Shown here: in pieces, positions 4,800 through 21,446 of the stretch | Layout of the letters: each line of letters begins with the position of its first letter | Position numbering within the stretch: the first letter of the stretch is position 1 | Virus record (IMG/VR): IMGVR_UViG_3300018080_000578 | Coordinates: 1-24,435 of that record | Source: a virus | Strand: one strand, 5' to 3' | DNA length: 24,435 nt | Made by a program: the position numbers and the translations under genes | Notes under the pieces: generated by a model | What the model was told of the DNA's origin: nothing | The model's database searches: none | The model's input: only the letters and a program-made list of their open reading frames with translations

Positions 4800-4800
4800 G

Positions 4801-4857
4801 TGTCTCACTTTCTGCCCAAAGTGTATCACGCTTGACAGAATGAGACACATGAGACAC
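4801..4857. promoter_or_regulatory. Cluster of TGAGACA/TGTCTCA boxes in the divergent control region
   Basis: The 69 bp between the two divergent operons hold TGTCTCAC (4801-4808), a variant TGTATCA (4822-4828) and a perfect tandem of the 9-mer ATGAGACAC (4840-4848 and 4849-4857). More copies lie just inside the downstream gene (5020-5026 and the palindrome at 5042-5056). The same heptamer recurs at the second control region near 21401-21446 and nearly nowhere else. The boxes overlap candidate promoter elements for both strands, so a phage repressor or activator binding here could switch packaging and head genes together. The repeats are seen; their operator role is inferred. Confidence 0.65.
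4820..4828 (-). promoter_or_regulatory. Candidate extended -10 promoter for the packaging operon
   Basis: Read on the minus strand this is TGATACACT, an extended -10 (TGn plus TACACT, 4 of 6 to TATAAT). Transcription would start roughly 13 nt before the small-terminase ATG at 4799. The region 17 bp upstream (GTGTCT) is a poor -35, as is usual for extended -10 promoters, and overlaps a TGAGACA box. The match could be fortuitous. Confidence 0.4.
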
Positions 4858-4860
4858 TAT
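4832..4860 (+). promoter_or_regulatory. Candidate sigma70-like promoter for the head/tail operon
   Basis: A perfect TTGACA (4832-4837) is followed after 17 bp by CACTAT (4855-4860), a weak -10 (3 of 6). The spacer is almost entirely filled by the tandem ATGAGACAC repeat, a classic place for a regulator. The predicted start point is at about 4867, only 1-2 nt before the ATG at 4869, so this transcript would be leaderless. A competing reading uses TGTCTCA/TGTATCA (4801-4828) as the promoter elements, giving a leader of about 35 nt. Confidence 0.45.
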
Positions 4861-4868
4861 CGTCTTGC

Positions 4869-5996
4869 ATGCCCTTTCGATTCGACACTCGAGACCTGGG
4901 ACACGTCGAGCGAACGCCAGCCGGCGGGCTCCGCGTCCCTGCGACCGTCGCGAGGGAGGGCGTGCTGACCTATCCGTGGGGCCGCGAATATGTCCCACAG
5001 AGCACGCTCGACGCCAGCGTGAGACAGCTCAACGGGCTACCTGTCTCACTGAGACACCCGAGAGACAGGCGGGTCGACGCCGCGAACTGGCAGCGAGAGG
5101 CTGTGGGCCACGCGGGCGAGGATGCGCGCATGGACGACGACGCTCAGAGCGTCACCGTCTACGTTCAGCGCGCTGACGCCGTCGAGGCTGTCGAAAGCAG
5201 GCGCTACCGCCAGCTCTCCATGGGCTACGACACCACGCTAGACCCGACCCCCGGCGTGACCGAGAGCGGTGAGCGCTACGACGCGATCCAGACCGCCAGA
5301 TCCTACAACCACATCGCCCTGGTCGAGAGGGCCAGGGGCGGCGATACCCTCGCTCTTCGGCTCGACGAGGCCGGGGACGCAGTCATTGAGCAACCAGACC
5401 CGGCGCCGACCGGGAGGGAGATCCAGGGCATGATAGGAAAGATCCGCATCGACGGGATTGAGTACGAGATCGAGGCGCCGGAAAGCTTTTTCCAGGCCCA
5501 CGAGATCGCGTCGACCCGCCAAGACAAGGCGCTGAAGGCCGAGAAGGCCCGCGCCGACGAGGCCGAGGGCAAGGCAGCCGGTCTCGAGACGAAGCTCGCC
5601 GAGGAGACCCGGCGCGCTGACGAGGCGTCAGATCCGGCGCGGCTCGACGAGCGTGTCAAGGCACGCGCTGACCTCGAGGCCACCGCGCGAAAGGTGCTCG
5701 GCGCCGACGCGGATCTGACCGGCAAGACCGACCGCGAGGTCATGGAGCTGGCCGTCCGCACCGACGACGCCGAAGACCTCTCGAGCCGCTCGGATGACTA
5801 CATCCGCGGCGCGTTCGAGATCCGAACGGCGACGGCTGCGGCCCCGCGCGAAGACGGGCTCGACAGGGTCCGCCGCGCAGTGACAGGCCCGGGTGACCGC
5901 GAGGAGCCCCGCACCTCGCCGCTTCAGGCCGCGATCTCGAGGCTGCGACAGGATCAGGCCGAGGCCGCGACCCGGCAGATCGGAGGAGACCGATGA
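4869..5996 (+). CDS. Prohead protease with C-terminal scaffold domain, DUF2213 family
   Basis: A 375-residue product. The N-terminal domain (about 1-165) follows the DUF2213 pattern: RVPATVAREGVLTYPWG, LNGLPVSLRHP, NWQREAVGHAGE, VQRADAVEAVE, RRYRQLSMGYDT and YDAIQTARSYNHIALVERAR. His63, Ser117 and His148 sit where a serine-protease triad of prohead proteases would be expected. The C-terminal half (about 188-375) is charged, Ala/Glu/Arg-rich and coiled-coil-like (KALKAEKARADEAEG onward), typical of scaffold. The protease matures the prohead; the scaffold guides shell assembly. The capsid gene lies two genes downstream. No Shine-Dalgarno precedes ATG 4869 and no alternative early start exists, which fits a leaderless message. 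An internal start at 5430 may yield the scaffold alone. Catalytic residues are proposed from position, not shown. Confidence 0.85.
   Translation: MPFRFDTRDLGHVERTPAGGLRVPATVAREGVLTYPWGREYVPQSTLDASVRQLNGLPVSLRHPRDRRVDAANWQREAVGHAGEDARMDDDAQSVTVYVQRADAVEAVESRRYRQLSMGYDTTLDPTPGVTESGERYDAIQTARSYNHIALVERARGGDTLALRLDEAGDAVIEQPDPAPTGREIQGMIGKIRIDGIEYEIEAPESFFQAHEIASTRQDKALKAEKARADEAEGKAAGLETKLAEETRRADEASDPARLDERVKARADLEATARKVLGADADLTGKTDREVMELAVRTDDAEDLSSRSDDYIRGAFEIRTATAAAPREDGLDRVRRAVTGPGDREEPRTSPLQAAISRLRQDQAEAATRQIGGDR
5042..5056. promoter_or_regulatory. Perfect 7-1-7 palindrome of the TGAGACA box inside the protease gene
   Basis: TGTCTCA-c-TGAGACA is an exact inverted repeat with a single central base, lying in coding sequence (residues 58-63 of the DUF2213 protein). 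The same palindrome with central T occurs at 21401-21415 in a non-coding control region. A further box, GTGAGACAG, is at 5019-5027. Downstream intragenic operators are known in phage repressor systems, where they support looping or roadblock. The role here is inferred. Confidence 0.6.
5430..5996 (+). CDS. Candidate nested scaffold protein (internal start within the protease gene)
   Basis: An in-frame ATG at 5430 (residue 188 of the full protein) is preceded by GGGAGGGAG at 5412-5420, a strong purine-rich ribosome-binding site 9 nt upstream. The product would be 188 residues starting MIGKIRIDGIEYEIEAP, exactly the coiled-coil scaffold half without the protease domain. Lambda C/Nu3 is the known precedent for a scaffold translated from an internal start of a protease gene. 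The site and frame are seen; separate expression is inferred. Otherwise the scaffold could be released only by proteolysis. Confidence 0.5.
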   Translation: MIGKIRIDGIEYEIEAPESFFQAHEIASTRQDKALKAEKARADEAEGKAAGLETKLAEETRRADEASDPARLDERVKARADLEATARKVLGADADLTGKTDREVMELAVRTDDAEDLSSRSDDYIRGAFEIRTATAAAPREDGLDRVRRAVTGPGDREEPRTSPLQAAISRLRQDQAEAATRQIGGDR

Positions 5997-6835
5997 CACT
6001 CTGGACCGACAACACGTTCAACGTTGCCTACGAGGGCCAGGTCGCCGACGCACCCTCGTCGCTCAACGCGCTCTCCAAGATCGCCGAGGGCGATATCCGG
6101 GTCGGGCTGCTTCTCGAGCAGGGCACCTCGCACAACCAGGTCGCGCCCCTCTCGGCACTCCCCGTGCTCGATGACGATGCGATCACCGCGACCCCGCTGG
6201 CTTCAGCGGCGGCGGCAGTCGAGTACGATTTCGGGGACTTCGACGGTGTGGTCGGCGCGAATCCGATGGGCGTCTGCCAGCGCTACACCCTCGAGCTGAA
6301 CGCTCACGCCGACTGGCTGGACTCGGTCGGCCAGGTGATCTACGAGGAGCCCAGCGGGGCCGAGGTCGCCGAGGATTTCTTGATCCCCGCAGGTGGCGGC
6401 GTGACGCTGACCACCGACGGGATCGGGCGTCGCTTCAAGCTGATCACGTTGCCCGCTCAGGGCGGCACGAACGGGACCGTGACCATCGGGACGACCCCGA
6501 CGGCCTACGGGTTGAATCCCGATTTCTTTCATGCAGTTGGCGTCTACGACCGGATGGCGACCCCCTCGGACACCGCCACGGTCACCGTGGACGACGAGAG
6601 CAAGATCGCAGTCCTGCCCAAGGGCCGGATCTGGGTCATCAGCGAGACGGCAGTCACCGCGGCTCAGGTCGCCCTCGGCGGCGCTGACGCGTACGTGAGG
6701 ATGGTCACCGTGGGCGCCGCCGTTCGAGGTCAATTCCGCAGCTCGCCCGCGGCGAATTTCGCCAAGCTTCCCGGCGCGAAACTGCTCACAGCCTGCGATG
6801 CGGACGGCCTTTCCGTCCTCGAGATCGGAAGGTAG
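5993..6835 (+). CDS. Head decoration / structural cement-like protein
   Basis: A 280-residue protein between protease/scaffold and major capsid protein, the usual place of the cement protein in DUF2213-DUF2184 phages. ATG 5993 overlaps the preceding stop (ATGA) and follows a strong GGAGGAG at 5982-5988. The sequence is beta-rich and neutral to acidic, with an N-terminal SKIAEGDIRVGLLLEQGTSH, a central GVTLTTDGIGRRFKLIT and a C-terminal VRMVTVGAAVRGQFRSSP. The stretch DIRVGLLLEQGT and the Ala/Gly-rich VALGGADAYV resemble structural-cement families, but I cannot name one with certainty. It probably stabilises the expanded capsid. An alternative is a minor capsid protein of unknown role. Confidence 0.65.
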   Translation: MTLWTDNTFNVAYEGQVADAPSSLNALSKIAEGDIRVGLLLEQGTSHNQVAPLSALPVLDDDAITATPLASAAAAVEYDFGDFDGVVGANPMGVCQRYTLELNAHADWLDSVGQVIYEEPSGAEVAEDFLIPAGGGVTLTTDGIGRRFKLITLPAQGGTNGTVTIGTTPTAYGLNPDFFHAVGVYDRMATPSDTATVTVDDESKIAVLPKGRIWVISETAVTAAQVALGGADAYVRMVTVGAAVRGQFRSSPAANFAKLPGAKLLTACDADGLSVLEIGR

Positions 6836-6844
6836 GAGGACGAG

Positions 6845-7933
6845 ATGCCCAGCAAGATCACAGGCGATCAACTCGCCGATTTCATCGCCGCCCACTACCC
6901 CGCCGCGCAAGCGGATCGGGGCTACTGGCGCGCGGACGACGTGGACGTGGACCCCTGGCAGGCGTACACGGATCACCTCGTCGAGTGGGTCCGGCACGAC
7001 GCCGTCCCCGGTCTCCGTCTTGACGACGGTCAGACCGCGGTGTTTCGCGATGCCTTGGAACACATCGTCGCGCAGACGATCGACAAGCGATATCCGGCAC
7101 TCCGCGCTCGCGAGTTCATCCCGGTTGCGTCGGGCGTGAGCCCCGGAGCCGAGGAGATCTCGGTCATCGGCTACGAGGGTCGCGGCAGCGCGACCCGGCT
7201 GGCGACCTACGGCGAGGACATCCGGACCGTCGACGTCAGGGCCGGCAAGGCCACGATCCCCGTGGTCGGATCTGCCGCTGGCTGGCGGTGGACGACTCAG
7301 CAGGTCCGCGCCCTGGCGCAGGCCCGCAGCAAGGGATTCCCGAGCGACATCAACCAGAAGGGCATGGACACCGCCCGTCTGGTCGTGCTCCGCGACATCG
7401 ACGCCCTGCTCGCCACCGGCGAGGCTGACAGCGGCGTCGAAGGTTTCTGCGCGCTTGGCGACGTCAACGTCGTGACCGCTGGCGGCGCCTTCATCACCGG
7501 CGCGTGGGCTGGCGGCGTGACGACCCCCGCCCAGATCCTCGCCGACATCATCTATGCCCAGTCGCAGATCGAGGCGACCGGCGTGTGGATGATGGACACC
7601 CTGCTGATCCCGTCCTCGGTCTACGGCCACCTCGCGGTGACCGAGATCTCGGCCGGATCCGGCAAGTCCATCCTCGAGTGGCTGCGGGCGAGCCTGCCCC
7701 AGATCGGCATCGAGAAGTGGATCCACCTCGACACCGCCGGTGCTGCCGGCGTGACCCGCGCTGTCGCCTACATGCGAGATCGCGCTGTCGTCGAGGGCTA
7801 TCTCCCCGTCGACGTCGAGGCGCTCCCGCCCTGGCAGGACGGCCCGATGTCCTACTTGAACGTTTTCCATGCTCGCTGCGCCGGGTGTCACTCCGCGAAC
7901 CCGAGCGGCATGCTCTACATGGACGGAGTCTAG
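6845..7933 (+). CDS. Major capsid protein, DUF2184-type HK97 fold
   Basis: A 362-residue protein with a strong ribosome-binding site (GGTAGGAGG, 7 nt before ATG 6845). It shows the DUF2184 capsid pattern: YPALRAREFIPVASGVSPGAEEISVIGY near residues 85-113, then the GWRWTTQQVRALAQARSKG segment (about 147-165), ARLVVLRDIDALLATGE, a WMMDTLLIPSSVYGHLA beta/helix segment and the near-terminal VEALPPWQDGPMSYLNVFHARCAG. These elements are known in HK97-fold capsids recognised as DUF2184. It will form the icosahedral shell. It follows the cement gene and precedes the connector gene, as expected. Its C-terminus ends GMLYMDGV. Assignment is confident from order plus motif, without a structure comparison. 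Confidence 0.88.
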   Translation: MPSKITGDQLADFIAAHYPAAQADRGYWRADDVDVDPWQAYTDHLVEWVRHDAVPGLRLDDGQTAVFRDALEHIVAQTIDKRYPALRAREFIPVASGVSPGAEEISVIGYEGRGSATRLATYGEDIRTVDVRAGKATIPVVGSAAGWRWTTQQVRALAQARSKGFPSDINQKGMDTARLVVLRDIDALLATGEADSGVEGFCALGDVNVVTAGGAFITGAWAGGVTTPAQILADIIYAQSQIEATGVWMMDTLLIPSSVYGHLAVTEISAGSGKSILEWLRASLPQIGIEKWIHLDTAGAAGVTRAVAYMRDRAVVEGYLPVDVEALPPWQDGPMSYLNVFHARCAGCHSANPSGMLYMDGV

Positions 7934-7937
7934 ATCC

Positions 7938-8261
7938 ATGGCCGTGACCGCCGCATCGCTGAAGGCCGCTTGGCCGGAGTTCGACGCCGCCGCCGACGCA
8001 CTGGTGACGTCGAAGATCTCCCAGGCCGAGCGGTCTCTCAGCGAGTCGGCGTTCGCGGATTCCGACACCTACGACGACGCCGTCACGCTGAAGGCATGCC
8101 ACCTCCTCGCGCTCACCCCCGATGGCCGCGCGATGCGGCTGGATCCGGAGGGCAAGGCCGGTCGGTATGGCCTCGGAGTCACCATCTACGGCCAGGAGCT
8201 CGACCAGCTGATCCGCGCTTCGACGGTGGGCCTCGCCCGCCTTTCGGGGGACGGATCATGA
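7938..8261 (+). CDS. Head-tail connector protein, DUF4054-like
   Basis: A 107-residue protein. I chose ATG 7938, which has GGAG at 7925-7928 nine bases upstream; an in-frame start at 7869 would read back into the capsid gene. The sequence is mostly helical: SLKAAWPEFD, ISQAERSLSESAFADSDTYDDAVTLKACHLLAL, and a terminal SGDGS. The pattern 'F-P-E-F, then ISQAE..., then a helix ending in HLLA' is the connector signature seen in DUF4054 and gp6-like proteins. It should bind under the portal as the first connector ring. The next gene overlaps by ATGA. Confidence 0.75.
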   Translation: MAVTAASLKAAWPEFDAAADALVTSKISQAERSLSESAFADSDTYDDAVTLKACHLLALTPDGRAMRLDPEGKAGRYGLGVTIYGQELDQLIRASTVGLARLSGDGS

Positions 8262-8731
8262 CGGTCCGCGATGTGGATCACGGCTACGAGGCACTGTTTC
8301 GTCGCCTCGCTCAGCGGAACCAGGGCCGCGTCGTCGACGTCGGGGTCATGGGTCAGGAGGGCGCTGGGATCTACGAGGGGACCGGGCTCACCGTCGCCGA
8401 CGTCGCGAGCTTTCATGAGTTCGGTCGCGGCGTCCCCGAGCGCTCGTTCATTCGGGCCTATGTCGACGAAAACAGAGAGCAAATCGAGAACACGCTTCGC
8501 CGGATGGCGCAGAAGGTCATCAAGGGCGAGGTCAGATCTTTCGACGCGGGACTCGAGCTGATCGGGCAGAGGATCCAGAACGAGATCAAGAAACGGATCA
8601 AGGCTGGAATCGAGCCCGCACTTGCGCAATCCACCATCGACCGCAAGGGATCCAAGCCCCCGCTGATCGACACCGGCCAGCTCATCAATAGCATCACCTA
8701 CGAGCTGCGCCAGATCGCCGAGGGCGCGTGA
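8258..8731 (+). CDS. Neck / virion morphogenesis protein, HK97 gp10-like
   Basis: A 157-residue protein whose ATG 8258 overlaps the preceding stop. The open frame runs further upstream but that part is connector-gene shadow. It holds the gp10/virion-morphogenesis hallmark FHEFGRGVPERSFIRAYVDENREQI (about residues 49-73), where 'HEFG...PERSFIR' is the conserved centre, followed by a long helix and a terminal QSTIDRKGSKPPLIDTGQLINSITY. The last phrase (P-x-x-DTG-x-L-x-x-S-x-x) is also widely conserved in these proteins. Members help close the head-tail junction. Confidence is high for the family and moderate for the exact role. Confidence 0.8.
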   Translation: MTVRDVDHGYEALFRRLAQRNQGRVVDVGVMGQEGAGIYEGTGLTVADVASFHEFGRGVPERSFIRAYVDENREQIENTLRRMAQKVIKGEVRSFDAGLELIGQRIQNEIKKRIKAGIEPALAQSTIDRKGSKPPLIDTGQLINSITYELRQIAEGA

Positions 8732-9315
8732 TGAATCTCGGCGCGATCAGAGAGGCCGTCGCAACCTGGGTGGCTGACGTCACCGGGCTCCCCGTCCGGT
8801 GGATGGAGCGGCCCCAGTCCTTCGGCGCCGACCAGATGCTCCTGCATATCAGGGGCTTTCGCGGCGTCGGCCTCGACGAACTCGTCGAGGAATACGACGA
8901 AACGACCCCGCTCGGATCTGACTGGGGAGACATCGTCGGAGGCTACACCCCGACACAGACCGGCCAGCGGGTCGGCACCCTCGAGATCCGGGCCGAGCTC
9001 CAGAGCCAGGCGAGCGACGAGGACGCGCTGTACTACGTACAGCTCGTTCGCGACCGGCTGGCTCTGCCAGCATGCACCGACGCGCTCGAGGCCGCCGGGG
9101 CAGCCATCGGGGAGATCCTCCTCGAGCCGACAGAGATCAGCATGACGCGAGACCTTCGGCGCACGTCCACGGCTCAGATGGACGTCGCCCTGAATGCCGC
9201 CGCGGCTGCTGACGGGGTGCCTTACGGCACCATCGAATCCGCAGATCTCACAGTCGTCGGGCGGGACGAGGACGGCGCGACCGTCTTCTCCGTCGCGACG
9301 AAGATAGAGGTATAG
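8731..9315 (+). CDS. Neck terminator / tail completion protein, LIC_12616-like
   Basis: A 194-residue protein. I prefer ATG 8731, which shares one base with the preceding stop (TGATG), over the in-frame GTG 8728. Sequence features are LGAIREAVATWVADVTGLPVRWME at the N-terminus, an internal loop ending TGQRVGTLEIRAELQSQ, a helix YYVQLVRDRLALP and a C-terminal strand pair FSVATKIEV. The order 'short helix, V-x-W, basic loop, ALYYV-LVRDRL' matches the tail terminator families that cap the tube under the connector. Position before the sheath agrees. The terminator role is inferred from family and order. Confidence 0.7.
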   Translation: MNLGAIREAVATWVADVTGLPVRWMERPQSFGADQMLLHIRGFRGVGLDELVEEYDETTPLGSDWGDIVGGYTPTQTGQRVGTLEIRAELQSQASDEDALYYVQLVRDRLALPACTDALEAAGAAIGEILLEPTEISMTRDLRRTSTAQMDVALNAAAAADGVPYGTIESADLTVVGRDEDGATVFSVATKIEV

Positions 9316-9316
9316 A

Positions 9317-9574
9317 ATGTCCGAGCTGATCATCACGATCCACCGGGACGAGAGAGACTGGCCCGCGACCACGCGGCGCACCCGGATGACCGGCTATGGG
9401 GTCGGCGTCCACTCGATGACCTCCGAGCACTGGGCGGGCCGTGTCGAGCACGTCGGTCGCCCGCGAATCGACGCCGCGATCCGGCGCAAGGATCTCCGCG
9501 TCGTCGACGCATCGACGCTCGCAGATCCGGCAGCCGCGACCGAGGGCGAGGAGCCCGAAGGGGGTGAGCGATGA
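9317..9574 (+). CDS. Small pre-sheath protein, DUF2635-like position
   Basis: An 85-residue basic protein with an acidic, Glu/Gly-rich tail (EGEEPEGGER). GAGG at 9307-9310 lies six bases before ATG 9317, and the stop overlaps the sheath start as ATGA. Mu and relatives carry a short DUF2635 protein directly before the sheath, and the phrase GVHSMTSEHWAGRVEHV vaguely recalls its Tyr/Trp-Arg-Arg pattern. The match is weak, so I leave the function open: a sheath assembly helper or an unrelated small gene. The frame is credible because of coupling on both sides. Confidence 0.6.
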   Translation: MSELIITIHRDERDWPATTRRTRMTGYGVGVHSMTSEHWAGRVEHVGRPRIDAAIRRKDLRVVDASTLADPAAATEGEEPEGGER

Positions 9575-10959
9575 GCCTCAGCGACTATACCTCGATCACC
9601 GTCTCGCGTGAGACCCAGGCACCGAGTCAGCAGTCGTTCAACACGCTCGGGATTCTGGCATACCACAGTGTTTACGCGGACTACGCCCGCCAGTACGACG
9701 CGAACGCCGACGGCCTGGCACAGATGGTCACGGACGGATTCAACACATATGATCCGGCCTACCGCATGGCGAGTCGCTTCGTTTCGCAGGACGGCCACCC
9801 GCCGTATTTCCGCGTGCTGCGGCGCGAGACGGCGTACCAGCAGGGCGTCGAGCTCGAGCCGGATCAGGGCGGCGTTGTCCCGCCCGCGGCGCTGGTGATC
9901 ACCGTCTCGATCACCGGCCCCAACGGGACCACCATCGACTACACCCGCACCTCAGCGGGCGTTTCGAAAAACGCCGAGGCGACCGCGCTCGCGAACTCGA
10001 TTGACGTTGATCCCCTCGGCTGGGGCGCTGGCGGATCTGCGGAGTTCGTCTGCGCGGTTTCGGGCGGTGGCGCTGGTGACAAGATCGAGATCGACTCGGC
10101 AGCCGCAGACGGGAAGCTCTGGTATTTCACCGGCATGGAGTACCTCATCTATGAGGACGTCACGCCTGATCCGGGCATCGTCGCCGACCTGACCACAATT
10201 CGCACCTCGGGATCCGACGATTTCTACGGGATCATCATCGACTCGGAGAGCGACGCCGAGGTCGCGGCCCTCGCCGCTCACGTCGAGACGCTCAACAAGA
10301 TCTTCGGCTTCGCGTCCAGATCCACCGCGGTCCCGACAGCCGGCGCGGGCGACATCTTCACGGCGCTCGAGGCAGCCGACTACGACCGCACCTTTGGGGT
10401 CTCGACCGCTGGATCTCTCGCGACCTACCCCGCCGCAAGCTGGATGGGCCTGAAGCTCGGCGCCACGCCAGGATTCACCAACTGGGCCTTCGCGTCGTCC
10501 GCAGCCGGCGTCGTCGCCGACACCTGGACCGCAGCGGAGAAGGGATATATCCGGACGACCAAGGGCGGCAACTACTACATCGAGGAGGCCGAGATCTCCC
10601 ACTTCTACCCGGGGCAGATGTTCAGCGGCGAGTGGATTGACATCATCATGCTGGTCGACTGGACCGTCGCCCGAATCCAGGAAGCCGTCTTCGGCTCGCT
10701 GATTACGGCGGACAAGATCCCCTACACCGCCAAGGGCGCCGAGCAGATCAAGGGCGAGTGCTTCTCGGTCGTCCGCCAGCAGATGCGAGACGACGACTCG
10801 GGCGGGTACGTCAAGGGATCCGAACTCTTCACCTACCCCGAAATGTCAACGATCTCAACGGCAAACAAGGCGTCACGGAACCTCCCGGACTGCACCCTGT
10901 ATTGCCAATTCACCAACGCGATCAACACGGTCGGCCTCGAGCTGACGCTCAGCTACTAG
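9571..10959 (+). CDS. Contractile tail sheath protein, DUF3383-type
   Basis: A 462-residue protein; ATG 9571 overlaps the previous stop and follows GGGGGTGAG. The N-terminus SLSDYTSITVSRETQAPSQQ is the DUF3383 opening (V-x-V-S-x-x-T-x-A-P-x-x). Further features are a beta-rich insertion (about residues 105-190), DFYGIIIDSESDAEVAALAAHVE (about 213-235) as the Rossmann-like core, ASWMGLKLGATPGFTNWAFAS (about 289-309), and KGGNYYIEEAEIS with the terminal QFTNAINTVGLELTLSY, the C-terminal strand that links sheath subunits. The sheath surrounds the tube and contracts to drive it into the host. It defines this as a myovirus. Confidence 0.9.
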   Translation: MSLSDYTSITVSRETQAPSQQSFNTLGILAYHSVYADYARQYDANADGLAQMVTDGFNTYDPAYRMASRFVSQDGHPPYFRVLRRETAYQQGVELEPDQGGVVPPAALVITVSITGPNGTTIDYTRTSAGVSKNAEATALANSIDVDPLGWGAGGSAEFVCAVSGGGAGDKIEIDSAAADGKLWYFTGMEYLIYEDVTPDPGIVADLTTIRTSGSDDFYGIIIDSESDAEVAALAAHVETLNKIFGFASRSTAVPTAGAGDIFTALEAADYDRTFGVSTAGSLATYPAASWMGLKLGATPGFTNWAFASSAAGVVADTWTAAEKGYIRTTKGGNYYIEEAEISHFYPGQMFSGEWIDIIMLVDWTVARIQEAVFGSLITADKIPYTAKGAEQIKGECFSVVRQQMRDDDSGGYVKGSELFTYPEMSTISTANKASRNLPDCTLYCQFTNAINTVGLELTLSY

Positions 10960-10968
10960 GAGATCCCC

Positions 10969-11403
10969 ATGGGCGAACAGAGCACTCACAGCCTGGCGCG
11001 GACGGCGCTCTCGATTGCCGGGATCAACATCTCGGCGGGCGCGGGCACCGGATCTTTCGTCAAGGTGACCCCCGTCGGCGACTGGCGCTCGGTCACCGTC
11101 GGCGTCCAGGGCGACGTTTGCGTCAACGAAAACGCCGACCATTCCGCGACCTTCGAGCTGACGCTGCTTCACTCGGCGACGCTCAACCGCCAGCTCCAGG
11201 CCAAGCTCAACCTGACCACCGGCCAGGACGGCTCGGTCGGGATCGGGGCCTTCCAGCTCACGGATCTGGCGAGCGGATCCGAGATCTCCGGTGACTGCGT
11301 GCTGACCGCTCCCCCCGAGTGGGACGTTCAGACCGAGGTGCAGAACGCCGTCTGGAAGGGTACGATCCTCCAGGCCACCTACAGGCTCGGGGGCACCGCG
11401 TGA
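10969..11403 (+). CDS. Tail tube protein, DUF3277-like
   Basis: A 144-residue protein starting at ATG 10969, with AGGAG overlapping the sheath stop 7-8 nt upstream. It is beta-rich: LSIAGINISAGAGTGSFVKVTP, WRSVTVGVQGDVCVNENADHSATFELTLLHS, then DGSVGIGAFQLTDL and a closing VWKGTILQATYRLGGTA. The phrase 'V-x-G-x-x-G ... N-x-N-x-x-x-x-x-F-x-L-x-L' is typical of small tube proteins in this group. It forms the inner tube inside the sheath. The following chaperone start overlaps its stop as GTGA. Length and position fit the family. Confidence 0.85.
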   Translation: MGEQSTHSLARTALSIAGINISAGAGTGSFVKVTPVGDWRSVTVGVQGDVCVNENADHSATFELTLLHSATLNRQLQAKLNLTTGQDGSVGIGAFQLTDLASGSEISGDCVLTAPPEWDVQTEVQNAVWKGTILQATYRLGGTA

Positions 11404-11879
11404 GGAGCGAATCCCGCAAGATCGGGGGCCATCGCTACACTGTGACCATGCTCCTGCTGGATCAGTGGCAGGATCTTCGCGATGCGGTCTGGCCGACGCT
11501 GATGGGTGTGATCCCCGACGTGGTCGAGGCCGACAAGGTTACGAAGGAGCAGCTCACGGACGTGGTCAGATCCGCCTCGGTGCTCCTGCCGCTCCAGCCC
11601 GAGAGCTACCGCACCGCGATCCGGCTGCTCCACGAGTGCTCCGAGGTCGACGGGCAGGCCGGTCGCCTCTCGGACGTGGGCGAGATCTGGTGGGCCGAGC
11701 AGGGTTACGCCGAGCTCGGCGAGTGGCTCGCCTTCGCGCTGGAGATCCAGCTCGTCCCTTTCTTGCACAGTCTGCCTCTCGCGAGCCTCCGGCGTCTTGC
11801 TCAGGGCCGTCCGTCCGCATCCCCGATCACATCGACTGGGATGTCTGGCGGCTTGTCCGCAAAGGGTACGGGACTCTAG
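11400..11879 (+). CDS. Tail assembly chaperone, G-like (zero-frame product)
   Basis: A 159-residue product starting at GTG 11400, which overlaps the tube stop (GTGA). It opens VRSESRKIGGHRYTVTML, a start common to chaperone genes between tube and tape measure. The body is helical (LLDQWQDLRDAVWPTLMG; QGYAELGEWLAFALEIQ). Beyond the slippery site at 11756-11762 the zero-frame tail becomes low in family-like character (LRRLAQGRPSASPITSTG onward), as in lambda gpG. G-type proteins bind the tape measure before tube polymerisation and are absent from virions. The alternative GTG-independent start at an upstream ATG (11319) would lie inside the tube gene and is unlikely. Confidence 0.78.
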   Translation: MRSESRKIGGHRYTVTMLLLDQWQDLRDAVWPTLMGVIPDVVEADKVTKEQLTDVVRSASVLLPLQPESYRTAIRLLHECSEVDGQAGRLSDVGEIWWAEQGYAELGEWLAFALEIQLVPFLHSLPLASLRRLAQGRPSASPITSTGMSGGLSAKGTGL

Positions 11880-11968: not shown

Positions 11969-11971
11969 CTC

Positions 11972-14301: not shown

Positions 14302-14302
14302 C

Positions 14303-14632: not shown

Positions 14633-14633
14633 C

Positions 14634-15497
14634 ATGGCCGAGCTCTGGGGCAGGGTGTGGAGTCTACAGGTCGGCACGCTCCGCGTCGAGGGCGCAGCCC
14701 CGCGGGATCGCGGCGAGGATCTCTACTCTCTCGCCGTCGAATTCTCCGTCAAGAAAAGCCTCCGACGCGAGCCAAACGAGGCCGAGATCACGCTGTGGAA
14801 TCTCTCGCGGGAGCACCGCGCAGCGCTCGCCGCGATGGAGGCCGACGCGGACACCGTGCTGCGAGTCGGCTACCACGACACCGGCCTCGAGCAGATCTTC
14901 TCGGGCGATCTGCGTGCGTCTCCCGCCGAATGGGATGGGCCGCAGGTCAAGGTAACCCTCGAGGGATCCGACGGCGGCACGGCCTACCGCAGCGCCAGGA
15001 TCCAGCGGTCTTTCGCGCCGGGGACCTCGGTCTACACGGTGCTCGCCGCCGCCGTCGACGCGCTCGGGGTCGGGCGCGGCAACCTTCCCCAGCTCCGCGA
15101 CCAGATCCGCTTGACGTCGACGGGCAACACCTACCCTGGCGGGACGACCCTGTCGGGGCCAGCGCGCGACGAGATCAACCGGATCGTCCGCGGCTGCGGC
15201 GGCAGTTGGTCGATTCAAAATGGGGTCTTCAGGCTGCGGCTCAGAGGCCCCTCTCAGGCGACGGCGCTACGCGTCTCGCCAAGGACCGGGCTGGTCGGCA
15301 GCCCGACACAGGCCACCGACCGAGGGGTCACGACGGTGAGCGCGAAAGTGCTCATGCTTCCGGGGCTTTATCCGGGCCGTGTCGTCCAGATCCAGAGCCG
15401 CGAAATCGAGGGCAACTACGAGATCCACCGCGTGGAATACACCGGCGAGACCCGCGGGCAGGAGTGGGGTGCTACACTTGAGCTGAGACCGTACTGA
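14634..15497 (+). CDS. Baseplate hub protein, gpD/gp27-like
   Basis: A 287-residue protein with ATG 14634, one base after the previous stop. The N-terminus (about 1-75) gives LYSLAVEFSVKKSLRREPNEAEITLWNLS, the tube-like start of small hub proteins, where 'F-x-V-x-K-x-x-x-x-x-P-N-x-x-x-I-x-x-x-N-L-S' is common. A second half has RIVRGCGGSWSIQNGVFRLRLR, GLVGSPTQATD and VQIQSREIEGNYEIHRVEYTGETRGQEW, matching the closing domain of the family. It forms the hub that links the tube to the spike. Length is typical for short contractile tails. The next gene encodes the spike, which supports the call. Confidence 0.82.
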   Translation: MAELWGRVWSLQVGTLRVEGAAPRDRGEDLYSLAVEFSVKKSLRREPNEAEITLWNLSREHRAALAAMEADADTVLRVGYHDTGLEQIFSGDLRASPAEWDGPQVKVTLEGSDGGTAYRSARIQRSFAPGTSVYTVLAAAVDALGVGRGNLPQLRDQIRLTSTGNTYPGGTTLSGPARDEINRIVRGCGGSWSIQNGVFRLRLRGPSQATALRVSPRTGLVGSPTQATDRGVTTVSAKVLMLPGLYPGRVVQIQSREIEGNYEIHRVEYTGETRGQEWGATLELRPY

Positions 15498-15503
15498 GGG
15501 CAA

Positions 15504-16166
15504 ATGGCGGATAACGAAAACATCACCGGGAACGTGAGCCGACCGGAGCTCCTGCGCCGCGTCCTCGACGCTCAGCGCCGGACGATCCGCACCGCGACCC
15601 CCGGCGTGATCCAGTCCTACAGGCGGACCGGAGATCAAAAGAACACGGCTGACGTCGAGCTCCCCGTCCGCCCCGAGGGTGAGGCGCAGACGGTCCTCTC
15701 GCACGTCCCCGTGCTGATCCTCGGCGGCGGCGACGGCTACCTGATCTTCCCCTACGAGGCAGGAGATCCGGGCGTCGTCAACTTTTGCGACACCGAGATC
15801 GGGACGTGGCGGACCAGCGGCGACGTCGGAGCCCCGGCAGATGACGGGCGCCTCAACTCCGCGGGGCCAGTGCTGATCCCCGGGCTGCGCCCGGTCGGCG
15901 ACGCGCTCGACGCGCCAGCCGGGGCGACGGTGCTGGCCGGATCAGATGTGCGACTCGGCGACGGGGCTGCGACGAAGGCCGCCGTCCACGAAGATCTGCT
16001 CTCAGATCTCAACAGCCTGTGCAACTCACTCTCGACGTGGGCGACCCAGGTGAACGCCGCAGGGCCGTTCGCTGAGACGGCGAATCTCCTGATCCAGATC
16101 GCCACCATCGTCGCGGGTGTGGCTGGCGGATCATACGAGAGCCCGAGTGTCAAGGTGGAGGACTGA
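15504..16166 (+). CDS. Baseplate spike, Gp138 N-terminal OB-fold type
   Basis: A 220-residue protein starting at ATG 15504; GAGGG at 15496-15500 is close to the start. Residues about 20-115 follow the Gp138_N pattern: TATPGVIQSYRRTGDQKNTADVELPV, VLSHVPVLILGGGDGYLIFP, then EAGDPGVVNFCDTEIGTW. A short Gly/Ala-rich region follows (LAGSDVRLGDGAATKAAVHE), and the C-terminal helix-rich part has LLSDLNSLCNSLSTWATQ. In the family the OB-fold attaches to the hub and the C-terminal part forms the membrane-piercing tip. Here the tip is unusually short, with no long triple beta-helix. Function as spike is inferred. Confidence 0.8.
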   Translation: MADNENITGNVSRPELLRRVLDAQRRTIRTATPGVIQSYRRTGDQKNTADVELPVRPEGEAQTVLSHVPVLILGGGDGYLIFPYEAGDPGVVNFCDTEIGTWRTSGDVGAPADDGRLNSAGPVLIPGLRPVGDALDAPAGATVLAGSDVRLGDGAATKAAVHEDLLSDLNSLCNSLSTWATQVNAAGPFAETANLLIQIATIVAGVAGGSYESPSVKVED

Positions 16167-16170
16167 TCCG

Positions 16171-16596
16171 ATGACCCAGGGACTCCGCACGCGCGAGCTC
16201 GCTACCTTCGTCGACAGCGAGAATCCGACCATCGGGGACTGGCGCGTCGTCGACGGTCAATTTTCGTGGCTTGCCGCCGACGACCCGCAGGCGACCGCGC
16301 AAGCGATTTGGCGACGGCTGCGGACCTACCGCGGCGAGGTGATCTCCGACCAGCGGATCGGGTTCCCCTGGTTCCAAGAGATCCTCGGGCGCCGCGGCGT
16401 GATCCCCCGCCTTCAGTCGATGATCCGGCAGGCTGTCTCAGGTACGCCCGGCGTGCGGAGCTGCGAGTCAGCGGGGTACACCGCCGACGGGGCGGCCAGA
16501 TCCATCACCATCGAGTGGTCGGCGGTCTTTGACGACGGCAAGATCTACTCGTCCGCTGACTTTCAGATCCCCTACATCATCGAGGCCGACTCATGA
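16171..16596 (+). CDS. Baseplate wedge protein, gp25/gpW-like
   Basis: A 141-residue protein starting at ATG 16171 with GGAGG about eight bases upstream; an open-frame start at 16117 is inside the spike gene. It carries WRVVDGQFSWLAADDPQATAQAIWRRLRTYRGEV (about 21-54), then IGFPWFQEILGRRG and MIRQAVSGTPGVRSCESAGYTAD. The order 'A-Q-x-I-x-x-R-L-x-T-x-x-G-E, then G-x-P-W, then I-x-x-A-x-x-x-x-P-G-V' is the gp25/W pattern. The stop overlaps the gpJ-like start as ATGA. The wedge lets sheath contraction begin at the baseplate. Confidence 0.82.
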   Translation: MTQGLRTRELATFVDSENPTIGDWRVVDGQFSWLAADDPQATAQAIWRRLRTYRGEVISDQRIGFPWFQEILGRRGVIPRLQSMIRQAVSGTPGVRSCESAGYTADGAARSITIEWSAVFDDGKIYSSADFQIPYIIEADS

Positions 16597-17828
16597 GCCA
16601 CTATCTCGACGCCACCGGGCTGCACACTGACAGCTATGAGACGATCCGCGCCGAGATTGTGACGGCGCTCCACGCCGCGATCTCCCCGGTCCTCGACCTC
16701 TCCGAGCAGTCGCCGGATGGCGCGTTGATCTCGCTGCTCGCGAATCGCGAGAGGACGGTCGTAGAGCTCGCCGAGGAGGTCTACGCTGGCAGCTACCCGT
16801 CGACCGCGGACGGCTTTCAGGTCGACCTGATCTCGGCCCTGAGCGGCTGCTACCGGCAGCCCGCGACCAAGAGCACGCTCGACGCGACCGAGGCCGACGT
16901 CCAGCTCGCAGCCGGCGCGACCCTGCCCGCCGGATCAGTGGCTCACGTCGACGGGATCCCGAGCGACAGGTTCGTCACGGTCGCCGCGGTCACGAACGGC
17001 GGCGGCGCGCCGGCATGGATCCCCTGCGCTTTCGAGGCCGAGGAGACCGGCCCGGTCCAGTGTCTCTCAGGGACGCTGAGCACAATCGCCGAACCCGTCG
17101 TCGGCTGGCTCGCTGTCCAGAGCACATCCGACGCGACCGAGGGCGAGGACGAGGAGACCGACGCGGATTATCGTCTGCGCCGGGTCCAGGAGCTCGCTCA
17201 GGGCGGAGCGTCCACAGCCGTCGCAGTGCTCGCAGATCTCTCGGCGCTCACCGGAATGATCTCCGTCGCCGTGTTGGAAAATGACGGGGACCACGTCGAC
17301 GCTGACGGGCTCCCGGGCCATTCCATCGCCCCGGTGGTCTATGACGGGACCGAGCCCCCGGCAGCGCCAGTCGTCACCGACGCGGTGATCGCCGCGGCCA
17401 TCCTCGGCGCGCTCGACAGCGGGAAGAGCGCAGGGATCAGGTCGTGGGGGACGACGCTCGAGGGCGTCGAGGACTCGCAGGGCGAGATCCACGAGATCGG
17501 GTTCACGCGTGCCGATATCCTCGACCTTTACATCGACGTCGACCTCTCGACCGATGGCGACTACGACGAGGATCTCTACCCCGCCGGCGCGGGTCTCGTG
17601 GCCGCTGTGCAGACCGCGCTGGTCGATTGGGGAGGCGAGGATCTCGGCCTCGGCGACGAGGTGGTCTATCTGCGGCTCGCCGCCGTCGTGCTTGGCGTCG
17701 AGGGGATCAACGACATCACGGCGCTGACCTGCGGCTGGGCGGCCCCACCCGGCGGCGTCGTCAACCTCGCAGTGGGGCGGTTCGAAATCGCACACGTCGA
17801 CAGCGCGAATATCGGGGTGACCCCGTGA
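16593..17828 (+). CDS. Baseplate wedge protein, gpJ/gp6-like
   Basis: A 411-residue protein with ATG 16593 overlapping the previous stop. Typical gpJ landmarks are TDSYETIRAEIVTALHAAISPVLDLSEQSPDGALISLLA at the N-terminus, AGATLPAGSVAHVDGIPSDRFVT (about 110-132), then DATEGEDEETDADYRLRRVQELAQGGAS (about 179-206), where the 'G-x-x-x-E-T-D-x-x-Y-R-x-R' signature is the strongest. The C-terminal half has LTGMISVAVLEND, IHEIGFTRADILDLYIDVDL and a closing VEGINDITALTCG, as in baseplate J proteins. It dimerises to build the baseplate ring with the gp25-like wedge. Next comes an unusual long gene rather than the expected DUF2612 protein. Confidence 0.9.
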   Translation: MSHYLDATGLHTDSYETIRAEIVTALHAAISPVLDLSEQSPDGALISLLANRERTVVELAEEVYAGSYPSTADGFQVDLISALSGCYRQPATKSTLDATEADVQLAAGATLPAGSVAHVDGIPSDRFVTVAAVTNGGGAPAWIPCAFEAEETGPVQCLSGTLSTIAEPVVGWLAVQSTSDATEGEDEETDADYRLRRVQELAQGGASTAVAVLADLSALTGMISVAVLENDGDHVDADGLPGHSIAPVVYDGTEPPAAPVVTDAVIAAAILGALDSGKSAGIRSWGTTLEGVEDSQGEIHEIGFTRADILDLYIDVDLSTDGDYDEDLYPAGAGLVAAVQTALVDWGGEDLGLGDEVVYLRLAAVVLGVEGINDITALTCGWAAPPGGVVNLAVGRFEIAHVDSANIGVTP

Positions 17829-19486
17829 GCTGGCACCCCGACGGATCTACGACCGACGCGCACCTTTGCGGGGCGTGGCAGAGGTTCAGTTTCGGCGCCA
17901 GCGCCGCCGATATGCTGTGCATCGTTGCACCGGACACGAACGCATCCTACTATGGCCGCGACCCCGACGATGCCGCGCAATTCAACCATGCTGACGGCGG
18001 ATCTTCTCACGGGATCGGGGCCTCGGTTGGCGGCGAATCGGGCCTGATCGCGATCCCGTCCGATGCGTCCGGCGACATCGAGATCTCGCCCGGATTCCTC
18101 GGACCCCACACGATGCGGCTCATCGGGACGCTGGACAAAACCGACGACGGCCAGGTCCTCGTGAACGCTGCGAGCATCGCGTCTGGGTCGTGGGACACCC
18201 ACCAGATCACGTCGCTTGCCGCTGGCGGAGGCTGCGCCCTGCTCCGGTGCACGCAGGCGACAGGAAATAACAAGCGCGTGAGCGTCAGACCGAGCGACCT
18301 GACGGCCGCGGCGCAGAACACGAGATCTTACGTATATAAAAGAAATTGTTGGATCGCCGCGGGCGACATAAACGACGTGGCTTATGTCCTCGCCGTCACC
18401 GATTCGACGGGGCACGTCGACCTCCGCTCGTACAGTGTGCTGACCGCATGGACAGTGACCGTCGTCTGCACTGTCGACGACTTCGTCCTCGCGCGGACGG
18501 AGTTCGATTCCTGGGTCACGGCAGATCAGAACTACCACGCCAGATCCACCGGGGCTCCCGGCGATTCGTTCTGCGCGTACCTCGCCCGGACAACCGACGT
18601 CTTGACGGATCACAATGTCTACGTATCCGAGGACAGTGCAACATTTTCAACGAAGATCAACAGCGGACTGACGGGGATCTCGAGCGGGTATCGACGGTTC
18701 AACGAGTTGACGCAGGCCGTCCCCCTCTTCAGCCCTATCGACTCCAGCAGCGACGTTGACGTCGCAATCGTCGGCACGACCGGCAAGACATGGGCGATAG
18801 ATCTGCTCGGGTACGTGATCTCGAATATCGCGCCGGTCTGCACATGGACCTCGCCGTCTGGCGGCGGGATCATCCCCGGCGCGACAATATCCGGGACGAC
18901 CACGGACGCCGACGGAACGATAGATCCGGCGCAGACCCAGGTGACGATCACCCATGATCCGCTTGGGACTCCAACCGCCTACAACGCCATCGTCAACGGC
19001 GTGGTCCAGGCGGGATTCACCGGATCTTGCACGGCCGCGGGCTGGTCGGTCACAAAAGACGGTGGCATGTATCCGGGCACATGGAGCTCGAGTGCGTCGT
19101 GCCAGGACGACGTCGGGTCGTCGGACACGGACACCGGATCATGGACTGTCGCGTGGTCGACGCCACCAGGGATCGACTACGAGCACCCAGCGGACTATGC
19201 GCCCGAGCCGTCGATGATCCGGTTCTCCGTCACTGACGACTACGGGATTGATCCGGCGACCCTGTCCATCACGGCTGTCGAGACAGTCAGCGGAGAGCGG
19301 GTCTCCTGGCCCGCGGTGACGCTCGGGGTCGTCGAGGACGGGTGGGACGCTGTGATCACCTACACCGGCGCGACACCCACCAGAATCGACGTCGTGATCC
19401 GGGGGTGGCCACTCGACCTCTCGGGGGTGTATCGTAGGGTCGAGATGGTCGTCGACGCCACCAGCTCGACAGGGGTGCCGATGTGA
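17825..19486 (+). CDS. Unrecognised large baseplate-associated protein with Ig-like domain
   Basis: A 553-residue product placed between gpJ and the DUF2612 protein. The start is GTG 17825, overlapping the J stop (GTGA). The frame is open far upstream, but that part is Arg-rich shadow of J. I do not recognise the first 330 residues; they begin SWHPDGSTTDAHLCGAWQ, are beta-rich, and hold several Cys and Tyr. Residues about 333-440 look like an Ig-type domain (NIAPVCTWTSPSGGGI, ATISGTTTDADGTI, and a closing GSWTVAW). Residues about 450-553 form another beta domain ending VDATSSTGVPM. No enzyme motif is seen. A patch near 18328-18350 is AT-rich and uses codons rare elsewhere in the window, hinting at a different origin. 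It could be a baseplate appendage or receptor-binding protein; this is inference. Confidence 0.6.
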   Translation: MSWHPDGSTTDAHLCGAWQRFSFGASAADMLCIVAPDTNASYYGRDPDDAAQFNHADGGSSHGIGASVGGESGLIAIPSDASGDIEISPGFLGPHTMRLIGTLDKTDDGQVLVNAASIASGSWDTHQITSLAAGGGCALLRCTQATGNNKRVSVRPSDLTAAAQNTRSYVYKRNCWIAAGDINDVAYVLAVTDSTGHVDLRSYSVLTAWTVTVVCTVDDFVLARTEFDSWVTADQNYHARSTGAPGDSFCAYLARTTDVLTDHNVYVSEDSATFSTKINSGLTGISSGYRRFNELTQAVPLFSPIDSSSDVDVAIVGTTGKTWAIDLLGYVISNIAPVCTWTSPSGGGIIPGATISGTTTDADGTIDPAQTQVTITHDPLGTPTAYNAIVNGVVQAGFTGSCTAAGWSVTKDGGMYPGTWSSSASCQDDVGSSDTDTGSWTVAWSTPPGIDYEHPADYAPEPSMIRFSVTDDYGIDPATLSITAVETVSGERVSWPAVTLGVVEDGWDAVITYTGATPTRIDVVIRGWPLDLSGVYRRVEMVVDATSSTGVPM

Positions 19487-20106
19487 GCGGAGGTTGGACA
19501 TTTGCTGTCGCCGTCGGCGTCGAGCACGACGAGGAGCACGTTGCCGAGGCGCTCGGGGATCTGCTTTTTCAAGATCAGGATCTCCCCCGGGTTGAGGCAT
19601 ACGTCGAGACCATGGGCGCCCGGTGGCAGGTCGTCGAAGATTTCCTCTGGCAGCTCGCCACTGAGCGCAACCTCGATGACGCCGTCGGCGTCCAGCTCGA
19701 CGGGATCGGCGACATCCTCGACGAGGCACGCGGCGGGCTCACAGACGACCAGTATCGGCTATTCCTTCGCGCGAAGATCCTCGTGCTGAGATCCAGGGGC
19801 CGCGTCGAAGAACTGATCCAGATCCTCGAGGTGCTCGGGTACACGTCCATCGCCGTCCGAGAGCATCCCCCGGCGCACATCCAGGTCGAGGTCTGCGACG
19901 TGACGCTCGCGCTCGAGACAGACCGGATCTTGCGGCTGGCAAAGGCCGGCGGGGTAGGGCTTTTGTTCGTCTACTCGACGACGGATCTGGCCCACACCTT
20001 CCAGGCGTCCGGCATTTACGGTGCTGCCGAATCCGATGCTGACACCGGAGCCGGCAGCGCCTATGATCCGACCACTGGCGGCGAGTCCGCAGGGAGCTAC
20101 AGATGA
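19483..20106 (+). CDS. Baseplate/tail protein, DUF2612-like (gpI-like position)
   Basis: A 207-residue protein starting at GTG 19483 with the stop of the previous gene overlapping (GTGA). It shows the DUF2612 order: LPRVEAYVETMGARWQVVEDFLWQLATERNLDDAVGVQLDGIGDILDEARGGLTDDQYRLFLRAKILV, where 'LD-x-A-x-G-x-Q-L-D-x-I-G' and 'D-x-x-Y-R-x-x-x-R-A-K-I' are the strongest parts. Next come VEELIQILEVLGYTSIAV and EHPPAHIQVEV. The C-terminus is Gly/Ser/Ala-rich (AESDADTGAGSAYDPTTGG) and probably flexible. These proteins link wedges to tail fibres, which fits the fibre gene directly after it. Confidence 0.82.
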   Translation: MSGGWTFAVAVGVEHDEEHVAEALGDLLFQDQDLPRVEAYVETMGARWQVVEDFLWQLATERNLDDAVGVQLDGIGDILDEARGGLTDDQYRLFLRAKILVLRSRGRVEELIQILEVLGYTSIAVREHPPAHIQVEVCDVTLALETDRILRLAKAGGVGLLFVYSTTDLAHTFQASGIYGAAESDADTGAGSAYDPTTGGESAGSYR

Positions 20107-21386
20107 GACCAGGTCCGATACCGTGGGCGACCAACGCGAACCATGCCGCGGGCGCTGATCCGTGGAGCGCGCAGCCGAACAAGATCCCGCCTGCGGCGGG
20201 CAAGATCGCGACCGGACGCGTCCCCGAGGAGCTGCCGCCAGCCGAAGAGACGAACTATGTCAGATCCGTCACCGGCGAGCTCGCGAACCGGGCCGCGACG
20301 CAGCGGCTCGCCTCGCTCGGGATCGTCTCGGATACCCTCGCCGCGGCGGGCTACACCCTCGCCGGTATCCAGATCGACTACTGCTGGGAGGGCGCGCTAT
20401 CGGCGACGACGATAGCGCAGTACGCATGGGGGATGGGCTACCAGGTCGCGGGAAATCACGAGGAGTGCCAGGCCGCCAACGGCTGGGTCTGGCGCCAGAT
20501 CTTCCCCGGCGGTGTCATCCCCGGCGCGGTCTTTCCGGCGTCGATTGCGAGCCACATCAATGGCGACAGAGGCATGGTCGGATCTGGCATCGTCGACGCT
20601 GTCTATGCATCGCCGGCACCGCTCGCGGCATGGCAGGCATGGGGCTTCGGCGCGGCGCTCGGTTTGACCTGGACGCAGATGGAGTGTGACAAGATCCCCG
20701 CGGGCGACACCTGGGTGATCTACGACAACAATTCCGCGGCCCCGCACATCGCTTTGGGTCACCTGCTCCCGTTCGCTCCGGTCGCCGCGCCTCCCGGATT
20801 CGCCGTCTCGCCCTGCACTCTGCGCCACTCCCACCACCAGGCCGGCGACGTTTACGACAGCGACGCGGGCAATTCGGTGTGGATGGCGCTCACGGCGACA
20901 GAGATCTCGACGAGCGCCGACGGAGACACCTGGCTCCCGGCTGCCCTTCACGGACTCTCGGCGGCGCCAATGATCGATGCGCTCGCGTACTCGAAGGCCG
21001 GATCTCGGTGGGTCACGGTGCTGAATAAGGCCGCCGCGACCATCGCCTACTCGGACGACAACGGGCTCTCATGGGCAGAGGTCACGCTCAAAAATCCGCT
21101 GGGTATCGACGTCACCCTCGGCGGCGGCAGCGCCCGGATCGCCTGCGACGGGTACGGCCACTGGATCGTCGCCTACTGCGACACCGCCGGGGCAAACGCC
21201 GTCCAGCTCGAGGCGAGCGCCGACAATGGCGAGACCTGGCATCTGATCTACCCCGAGGAGCAGACCGCCCTAGCGCCGCTGTGGCCGCACCTCGCGCTGG
21301 CCTACGGCGGCGGGCGATTCTACTTCCTCTCAGCGGACGGGGCGGGGAATTTCTACGCCGCCTCGAGTGCGACGTGCCTTGACTGA
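20103..21386 (+). CDS. Tail fibre / receptor-binding protein with Asp-box repeats
   Basis: A 427-residue protein with ATG 20103 overlapping the previous stop. The N-terminus (RPGPIPWATNANHAAG, then ATGRVPEELPPAEETNYV) is a Pro-rich anchor of the type that starts fibres in this gene order. The C-terminal half has Asp-box motifs of the BNR/sialidase type: SADGDTW (271-277), SDDNGLSW (317-324) and SADNGETW (372-379), with a degenerate SADGAGNFY near 410. Asp boxes mark blades of beta-propellers, which are common in glycan-binding or glycosidase proteins. No sialidase Arg triad or catalytic Tyr/Glu can be picked out, so binding is more likely than hydrolysis. The fibre is the last gene before the second control region. 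Confidence 0.75.
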   Translation: MRPGPIPWATNANHAAGADPWSAQPNKIPPAAGKIATGRVPEELPPAEETNYVRSVTGELANRAATQRLASLGIVSDTLAAAGYTLAGIQIDYCWEGALSATTIAQYAWGMGYQVAGNHEECQAANGWVWRQIFPGGVIPGAVFPASIASHINGDRGMVGSGIVDAVYASPAPLAAWQAWGFGAALGLTWTQMECDKIPAGDTWVIYDNNSAAPHIALGHLLPFAPVAAPPGFAVSPCTLRHSHHQAGDVYDSDAGNSVWMALTATEISTSADGDTWLPAALHGLSAAPMIDALAYSKAGSRWVTVLNKAAATIAYSDDNGLSWAEVTLKNPLGIDVTLGGGSARIACDGYGHWIVAYCDTAGANAVQLEASADNGETWHLIYPEEQTALAPLWPHLALAYGGGRFYFLSADGAGNFYAASSATCLD

Positions 21387-21399
21387 TCTGGACAAGGGG

Positions 21400-21446
21400 T
21401 TGTCTCATTGAGACATTTCGATGTATCATATGGTAGCCTGAGACAC
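21400..21446 (+). promoter_or_regulatory. Second control region: promoter with TGAGACA operator
   Basis: In the 114-bp gap 21387-21500, TTGTCT (21400-21405) and TATCAT (21424-21429) form a candidate promoter with an 18-bp spacer (4 of 6 and 5 of 6 to consensus). The perfect palindrome TGTCTCA-t-TGAGACA covers 21401-21415, over the -35. TGTATCA is at 21422-21428 over the -10, and a third TGAGACAC at 21439-21446 lies at the start of the predicted transcript. The arrangement TGTCTCA-N14-TGTATCA is identical in spacing to 4801-4828. It would give the distal fibre/lysis cassette a transcript of its own under the same regulator as the head operon. Confidence 0.6.

What the first reader, a model, noticed from the sequence alone, without database searches (positions are those of the whole stretch)
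4801..21446. A TGAGACA/TGTCTCA operator shared by two distant control regions
The heptamer occurs at 4801, 4841, 4850, 5020, 5042, 5050, 21401, 21409 and 21439, and only once elsewhere by eye (16434, inside a gene). About three copies on both strands are expected by chance across the window. Two are perfect 7-1-7 palindromes (5042-5056, 21401-21415). All clusters sit at starts of operons: the divergent packaging/head promoter and the distal fibre cassette. That fits one dimeric regulator controlling several late transcripts. No regulator gene is in the window.
Basis: partly seen in the sequence, partly recalled or inferred. Interest (0 to 1): 0.75.

Follow-up and report, generated by a model that had tools for sequence, protein, structure and literature searches.

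The report
Shared operator arrays at phage late promoters
A short DNA word, TGAGACA, is clustered three times in this phage fragment, at two promoters of structural genes and just inside one of those genes, almost certainly as the docking sites of one DNA-binding control protein; such switches are common in phages, but this one belongs to a recurrent word that unrelated phages, and bacterial genes next to one class of activator, also use.

Summary
In detail: 10 heptamers against 2.1 expected, and 9 of the 10 lie in three clusters of 56, 37 and 45 bp. One correction: cluster B (5020-5056) is not at an operon start. It lies 150-190 bp inside the prohead-protease gene and is written with rare codons; only 2 of 20,000 synonymous recodings give three heptamers. 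New: promoter regions A (4800-4856) and C (21400-21445) share a composite layout, TGTCTCA-N14-TGTATCA-N10/12-TGAGACA. This puts heptamers on the -35 box, the -10 box and near the start. TGTATCA occurs only at those two places. Best explanation: operators of one regulator missing from this 24-kb fragment, most likely a repressor, with B as an auxiliary operator. Heptamer arrays recur in unrelated phages (9 hits against 0 for a reversed control). In several they lie upstream of the terminase operon, and in L216 the array starts right after a near-consensus -10 box. On chromosomes many such arrays sit beside sigma54 activators with a Fis-type HTH. The window has neither a -24/-12 promoter nor such a protein. 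The regulator is unidentified. New member of a known kind.

The parts
4801..4807 (-). Half-site A1 (TGAGACA on -), just upstream of the terS ATG; read on + it is TGTCTCA over the -35 of the rightward promoter
4822..4828 (.). Variant half-site TGTATCA overlapping the -10 of promoter A; same offset (+21) as in C
4841..4847 (+). Half-site A2 (TGAGACA), direct repeat with 9-bp period
4850..4856 (+). Half-site A3 (TGAGACA)
4800..4829 (+). Putative rightward promoter: gTGTCT-N18-TATCAC, toward the protease/MCP operon
   Evidence: sequence; spacing identical to C; below the consensus-scan threshold
4820..4848 (-). Putative leftward promoter: gTGTCT-N17-TACACT with TGn extended -10, toward terS
   Evidence: read from the sequence; below the scan threshold, (inference)
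5020..5026 (+). Half-site B1, inside the protease gene
   Evidence: rare codon AGA
5042..5056 (.). Palindromic operator B (TGTCTCACTGAGACA), inside the protease gene, about 200 bp from A
21401..21415 (.). Palindromic operator C (TGTCTCATTGAGACA) over the -35 hexamer
21422..21428 (.). Variant half-site TGTATCA overlapping the -10 (TATCAT)
21439..21445 (+). Half-site C3 (TGAGACA) near the predicted start of transcription
21400..21429 (+). Sigma70-like promoter TTGTCT-N18-TATCAT for the distal cassette
   Evidence: 9 of 12 matches
4266..4799 (-). terS (PHROG 6299), first gene of the leftward terS-terL-portal-head operon
2743..4269 (-). terL
1238..2746 (-). portal protein
4869..5996 (+). Prohead protease (DUF2213, PHROG 530), first gene of the rightward operon; contains cluster B
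6845..7933 (+). major capsid protein
21501..22118 (+). First gene of the distal cassette (no family match); further downstream a weak carbohydrate-binding match and a beta-helix spike start

Best explanation
The heptamers are operator half-sites of one sequence-specific DNA-binding regulator encoded in the missing part of this contractile-tailed phage. At A and C the half-sites cover the -35 box, the -10 box and the start region of a sigma70-type promoter in the same order and spacing. Bound protein would therefore exclude RNA polymerase, so the most likely mode is repression: the structural and spike operons stay off until the regulator is lost or displaced. Cluster B, about 200 bp downstream inside the first rightward gene, would be an auxiliary operator (loop partner or roadblock), kept by selection on synonymous sites. 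Shown: motif excess, clustering, shared composite layout, codon cost at B, recurrence in other phages. Inferred: promoter activity, dimer binding, repression, looping, identity of the regulator.
For: Excess and clustering. TGTCTCA-N14-TGTATCA is present exactly twice, at the two promoter regions, and the next best match in the window has 3 mismatches. Consensus sigma70-like promoter at 21400-21429. Codon test at B: 2 of 20,000 recodings, and the worst codon stretch of that gene. Similar arrays in unrelated phages, 9 loci against 0 for the reversed control pattern, some with the same TGATACA variant. Arrays upstream of the terminase operon in L017, L214 and L216. In L216 the array begins immediately after the -10 of TTGACT-N16-TATACT in front of terS, a position that fits a repressor.
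Against: No regulator gene is available and no expression data exist. Promoter A is below the consensus-scan threshold. No conservation in TerL relatives, which are all at most 40% identical. Repression and activation are not separable from sequence alone.
Confidence: 0.6

Rival explanations
1. Activator sites: a phage or host activator binds the heptamers and turns on weak late promoters. In the extreme form they act like the chromosomal arrays, which look like upstream activating sequences of sigma54 enhancer-binding proteins with a Fis-type (HTH_8) domain.
For: Both promoters have poor -35 boxes. Near-identical arrays on chromosomes lie within 100 bp of an HTH_8 regulator gene in 9 of 38 loci, against 79 HTH_8 genes in 31 Mb in six of those genomes, and -24/-12 promoters are enriched near the arrays (22 against 6.6 expected).
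Against: No -24/-12 promoter near A, B or C. No HTH_8 protein over the cut-off in the window or in 12 other array-bearing or palindrome-bearing phage records. Half-sites at the start region and inside the gene are atypical for activators.
Confidence: 0.2
2. Packaging site: clusters A and B are a cosB/pac-like array bound by the small terminase subunit, whose gene starts at A.
For: A abuts terS. Other arrays lie upstream of terS in L017, L214 and L216.
Against: Cluster C lies 16.5 kb away at a spike-cassette promoter with the same composite layout as A. Several phage arrays (L059, L064, L066) show no recognisable terminase gene in the stretch inspected around them (by eye).
Confidence: 0.1
3. 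Alternative-sigma promoter: TGTCTCA-N14-TGTATCA is simply the -35/-10 pair of a phage-encoded sigma factor.
For: Identical spacing in A and C. One array phage (G015) encodes a sigma70-like factor.
Against: Does not explain the palindromes, the inverted copies or cluster B. Most array phages have no sigma70 region 4 over the cut-off.
Confidence: 0.07
4. Chance clustering.
For: A 7-mer is short.
Confidence: 0.01

Closest known systems
Multi-operator phage repressor systems (lambda CI; L5-type stoperators; from general knowledge)
   Same: One short site repeated at several promoters, with pairs, inverted copies and an intragenic copy.
   Different: Sites are at structural-gene promoters; no repressor gene seen; not a known operator sequence to me.
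Upstream activating sequences of sigma54 enhancer-binding proteins (HTH_8/Fis type)
   Same: Same heptamer in arrays of direct and inverted copies.
   Different: No -24/-12 promoter and no HTH_8 gene with the phage clusters.
lac/gal-type operators with an auxiliary operator inside the gene (from general knowledge)
   Same: Operator at the promoter plus a strong palindrome about 200 bp downstream in the first gene.
   Different: Looping untested; regulator unknown.
cosB/pac terminase-binding arrays (from general knowledge)
   Same: Repeats next to terS.
   Different: A second composite copy 16.5 kb away at a cassette promoter.

Membership tests
Multi-operator phage repressor regulon | Repeated, mostly palindromic or paired sites well above chance | tested here: met
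Multi-operator phage repressor regulon | Sites overlap promoter elements | tested here: met
   C by scan; A by shared layout, though A itself is below the scan threshold
Multi-operator phage repressor regulon | Cognate repressor gene | not testable with these tools
   The record is a 24-kb fragment; HTH_8, sigma70 r4 and HTH_17 absent from it
Multi-operator phage repressor regulon | Binding and repression | not testable with these tools
   needs experiments
sigma54 activator UAS | -24/-12 promoter nearby | tested here: not met
sigma54 activator UAS | HTH_8 activator encoded near the sites | tested here: not met
   (fragment only)
cosB/pac site | Array adjacent to terS | tested here: met
   cluster A
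cosB/pac site | Sites restricted to the packaging region | tested here: not met
   cluster C at 21401-21445
TetR-type operator | Recurrent TetR_N protein with the arrays | tested here: not met
   TetR_N over the cut-off in only 1 of 11 array records; four named phages with relatives of that protein, plus Aeromonas phage 56, lack the heptamer excess

The most novel reading that the evidence does not exclude
TGTCTCA/TGAGACA arrays are a widely shared regulatory 'word': unrelated phages place them at packaging and late operons, and the same word is the enhancer of many Fis-type sigma54 activators. Some phages may therefore be wired into, or have captured the DNA-binding domain of, that host regulator class to time late gene expression.
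Probability: 0.1. Interest if true: 0.65.

Novelty: new member of a known kind. Interest (0 to 1): 0.42.

Why it matters
It gives a testable regulatory map of a phage lineage with no close sequenced relative, with an operator that reaches into a coding sequence at a codon cost. The wider survey suggests a simple handle, a 7-bp word, for finding regulators of terminase operons in uncultivated phages, and it assigns a probable half-site to a class of sigma54 activators next to which the arrays occur. The literature searches made with this motif turned up no description of it as such a site.

Tried and rejected
TetR hypothesis (tetO is also a 7-1-7 palindrome; L017 encodes a TetR_N protein): rejected. 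HTH_8 protein encoded by the phages: not found. Sigma-factor promoter as the general explanation: not supported. HTH_17/AlpA-like regulators occur in several array phages, and one is divergent from the array in L216, but they are common in phages, so this is only a lead. Close relatives of the window: none by MCP, TerL, protease or portal; 80 TerL relatives at 40% identity or less lack the motif clusters. Literature searches for the motif returned mainly unrelated papers or nothing. An HTH survey of 69 small proteins of three array phages gave no shared regulator.

Full report
Observation. TGAGACA/TGTCTCA occurs 10 times in the 24,435-bp record, at exactly the listed positions. The dinucleotide-shuffle mean is 2.1, the maximum 6, and 0 of 100 shuffles reach 10. 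In 2000 simulated windows no 60-bp stretch held three copies, while the real window has three such stretches: A 4801-4856, B 5020-5056 and C 21401-21445. The two 7-1-7 palindromes are the only ones in the record.

B is not at an operon start. It lies 150-190 bp inside the prohead protease gene (DUF2213, PHROG 530). Its heptamers use the rare codons AGA (7% of Arg) and TCA (9% of Ser), and this is the worst codon stretch of the gene. With the protein held fixed, only 2 of 20,000 synonymous recodings contain three heptamers. So the DNA sequence itself appears to be selected there.

New anatomy. A and C share a composite element in the same orientation: TGTCTCA, then TGTATCA exactly 21 bp later, then TGAGACA 40 or 38 bp after the first. 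TGTATCA is found nowhere else in the window (0.53 expected), and no other place in the window comes within two mismatches of TGTCTCA-N14-TGTATCA. In C, TTGTCT-N18-TATCAT is a consensus-level sigma70-type promoter. A has gTGTCT-N18-TATCAC at the same spacing, although it is too weak for the scan. A leftward promoter for terS can be read on the other strand of A (gTGTCT-N17-TACACT with an upstream TG, overlapping the same -10 region; by eye). The heptamers therefore lie over the -35, the -10 and the start region.

Genes controlled. A separates terS-terL-portal-head (left) from protease-MCP-tail (right); C precedes a cassette leading to a carbohydrate-binding-like protein and a beta-helix spike. 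No HTH_8, sigma70 region 4 or HTH_17 protein is in the window.

Relatives. No close relative of the MCP, TerL, protease or portal was found. An alignment search gave 80 TerL relatives at 40% identity or less. None has two heptamers within 150 bp, and their overall density is one per 24.4 kb. Conservation at the same sites therefore cannot be tested at a useful distance.

The same word elsewhere. The pattern TGTCTCA-N12..16-TGTMTCA-N8..14-TGAGACA hits 9 viral loci; the reversed control hits 0. Three of the nine (L062, L063, L065) are one phage family. All nine are arrays of 3-8 heptamers, several with the TGATACA variant. A second pattern gave five more loci. Arrays lie upstream of the terminase operon in L017, L214 and L216 and upstream of gpW-portal in L062. 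In L216 the array starts directly after the -10 of TTGACT-N16-TATACT in front of terS, with a small HTH_17 gene divergent from it. That position fits a repressor.

On chromosomes the same pattern gave 38 loci (about 8 expected by my estimate from base counts), most of them arrays. Nine have a gene with a Fis-type HTH within 100 bp, while six of these genomes hold 79 HTH_8 genes in about 31 Mb, that is roughly one per 400 kb. Pfam confirms sigma54-activator and HTH_8 domains for L090, L103, L110, L121 and L123, weakly for L108, and HTH_8 with the AAA lid for the truncated L119. -24/-12 promoters are enriched near the arrays (22 against 6.6 expected). I infer that this heptamer is the half-site of many such activators. 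The window has no -24/-12 promoter at A, B or C, so the phage sites are not of that type, although the DNA word is shared.

Mechanism. Best supported: operators of one regulator, probably a repressor, holding late promoters off, with an auxiliary operator at B. Activation, a terminase-binding site and an alternative-sigma promoter are rivals with lower weight. The regulator is not identified. TetR was examined because of the tetO-like symmetry and rejected.

Verdict. A real, well-built regulatory feature of a known kind, with unusual points (intragenic operator under synonymous selection; recurrent heptamer). Interest moderate.

Noticed in passing
L016, L014, L039, L023, L046, L050 (IMG/VR AT-rich T7-like phages, records G001-G004): The 15-mer TGTCTCAWTGAGACA occurs perfectly up to 15 times (plus one single-mismatch copy) in a 26-kb record, upstream of genes and also in frame inside genes, often as Cys-Leu-Ile/Asn-Glu-Thr; flanks are not conserved. 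A 118-aa HTH_23-like protein whose gene carries a single-mismatch copy (L016:3650-4006) is a candidate binder. Number and placement resemble a phage-wide promoter or operator set.
   Followed up: partly
L093, L100, L110, L111, L118 (Sorangium, Minicystis): Similar array TGTCTCA..TGTCTCA.TGTCTCA (TGTATCA in L110)..TGAGACA; in L100 and L110 it lies directly upstream of a kinase-sigma54-activator-HTH_8 fusion gene, suggesting autoregulation.
   Followed up: partly
L091 and L121: Conserved order: response-regulator sigma54 activator, TGTCTCA array, a gene starting with the similar motif YSHDTFGLGH; a -24/-12 promoter lies between array and gene.
   Followed up: no
L056 (Klebsiella phage JD001): 4781, 9863, 27156, 30710, 35803: A different repeated palindrome, TTGACG-N4-CGTCAA, five times, mostly between genes, in a phage that encodes a small TetR-like protein.
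   Followed up: no
L066:970-990: A parS-like TGTTCCACGTGGAACA lies about 20 bp after a TGAGACA array in an uncultivated phage.
   Followed up: no
L214:10100-10466: Very dense array of more than 12 GGTGAGACA-type repeats over about 350 bp upstream of the terS-terL-portal operon.
   Followed up: no
L099, L106, L124 (Pectobacterium, Serratia): A 125-aa protein with SSLYR-type helix whose own start codon region carries the heptamers; no confident Pfam match.
   Followed up: partly
window 4869: The protease start ATG has no visible Shine-Dalgarno; its message may be leaderless or short-leadered.
   Followed up: no
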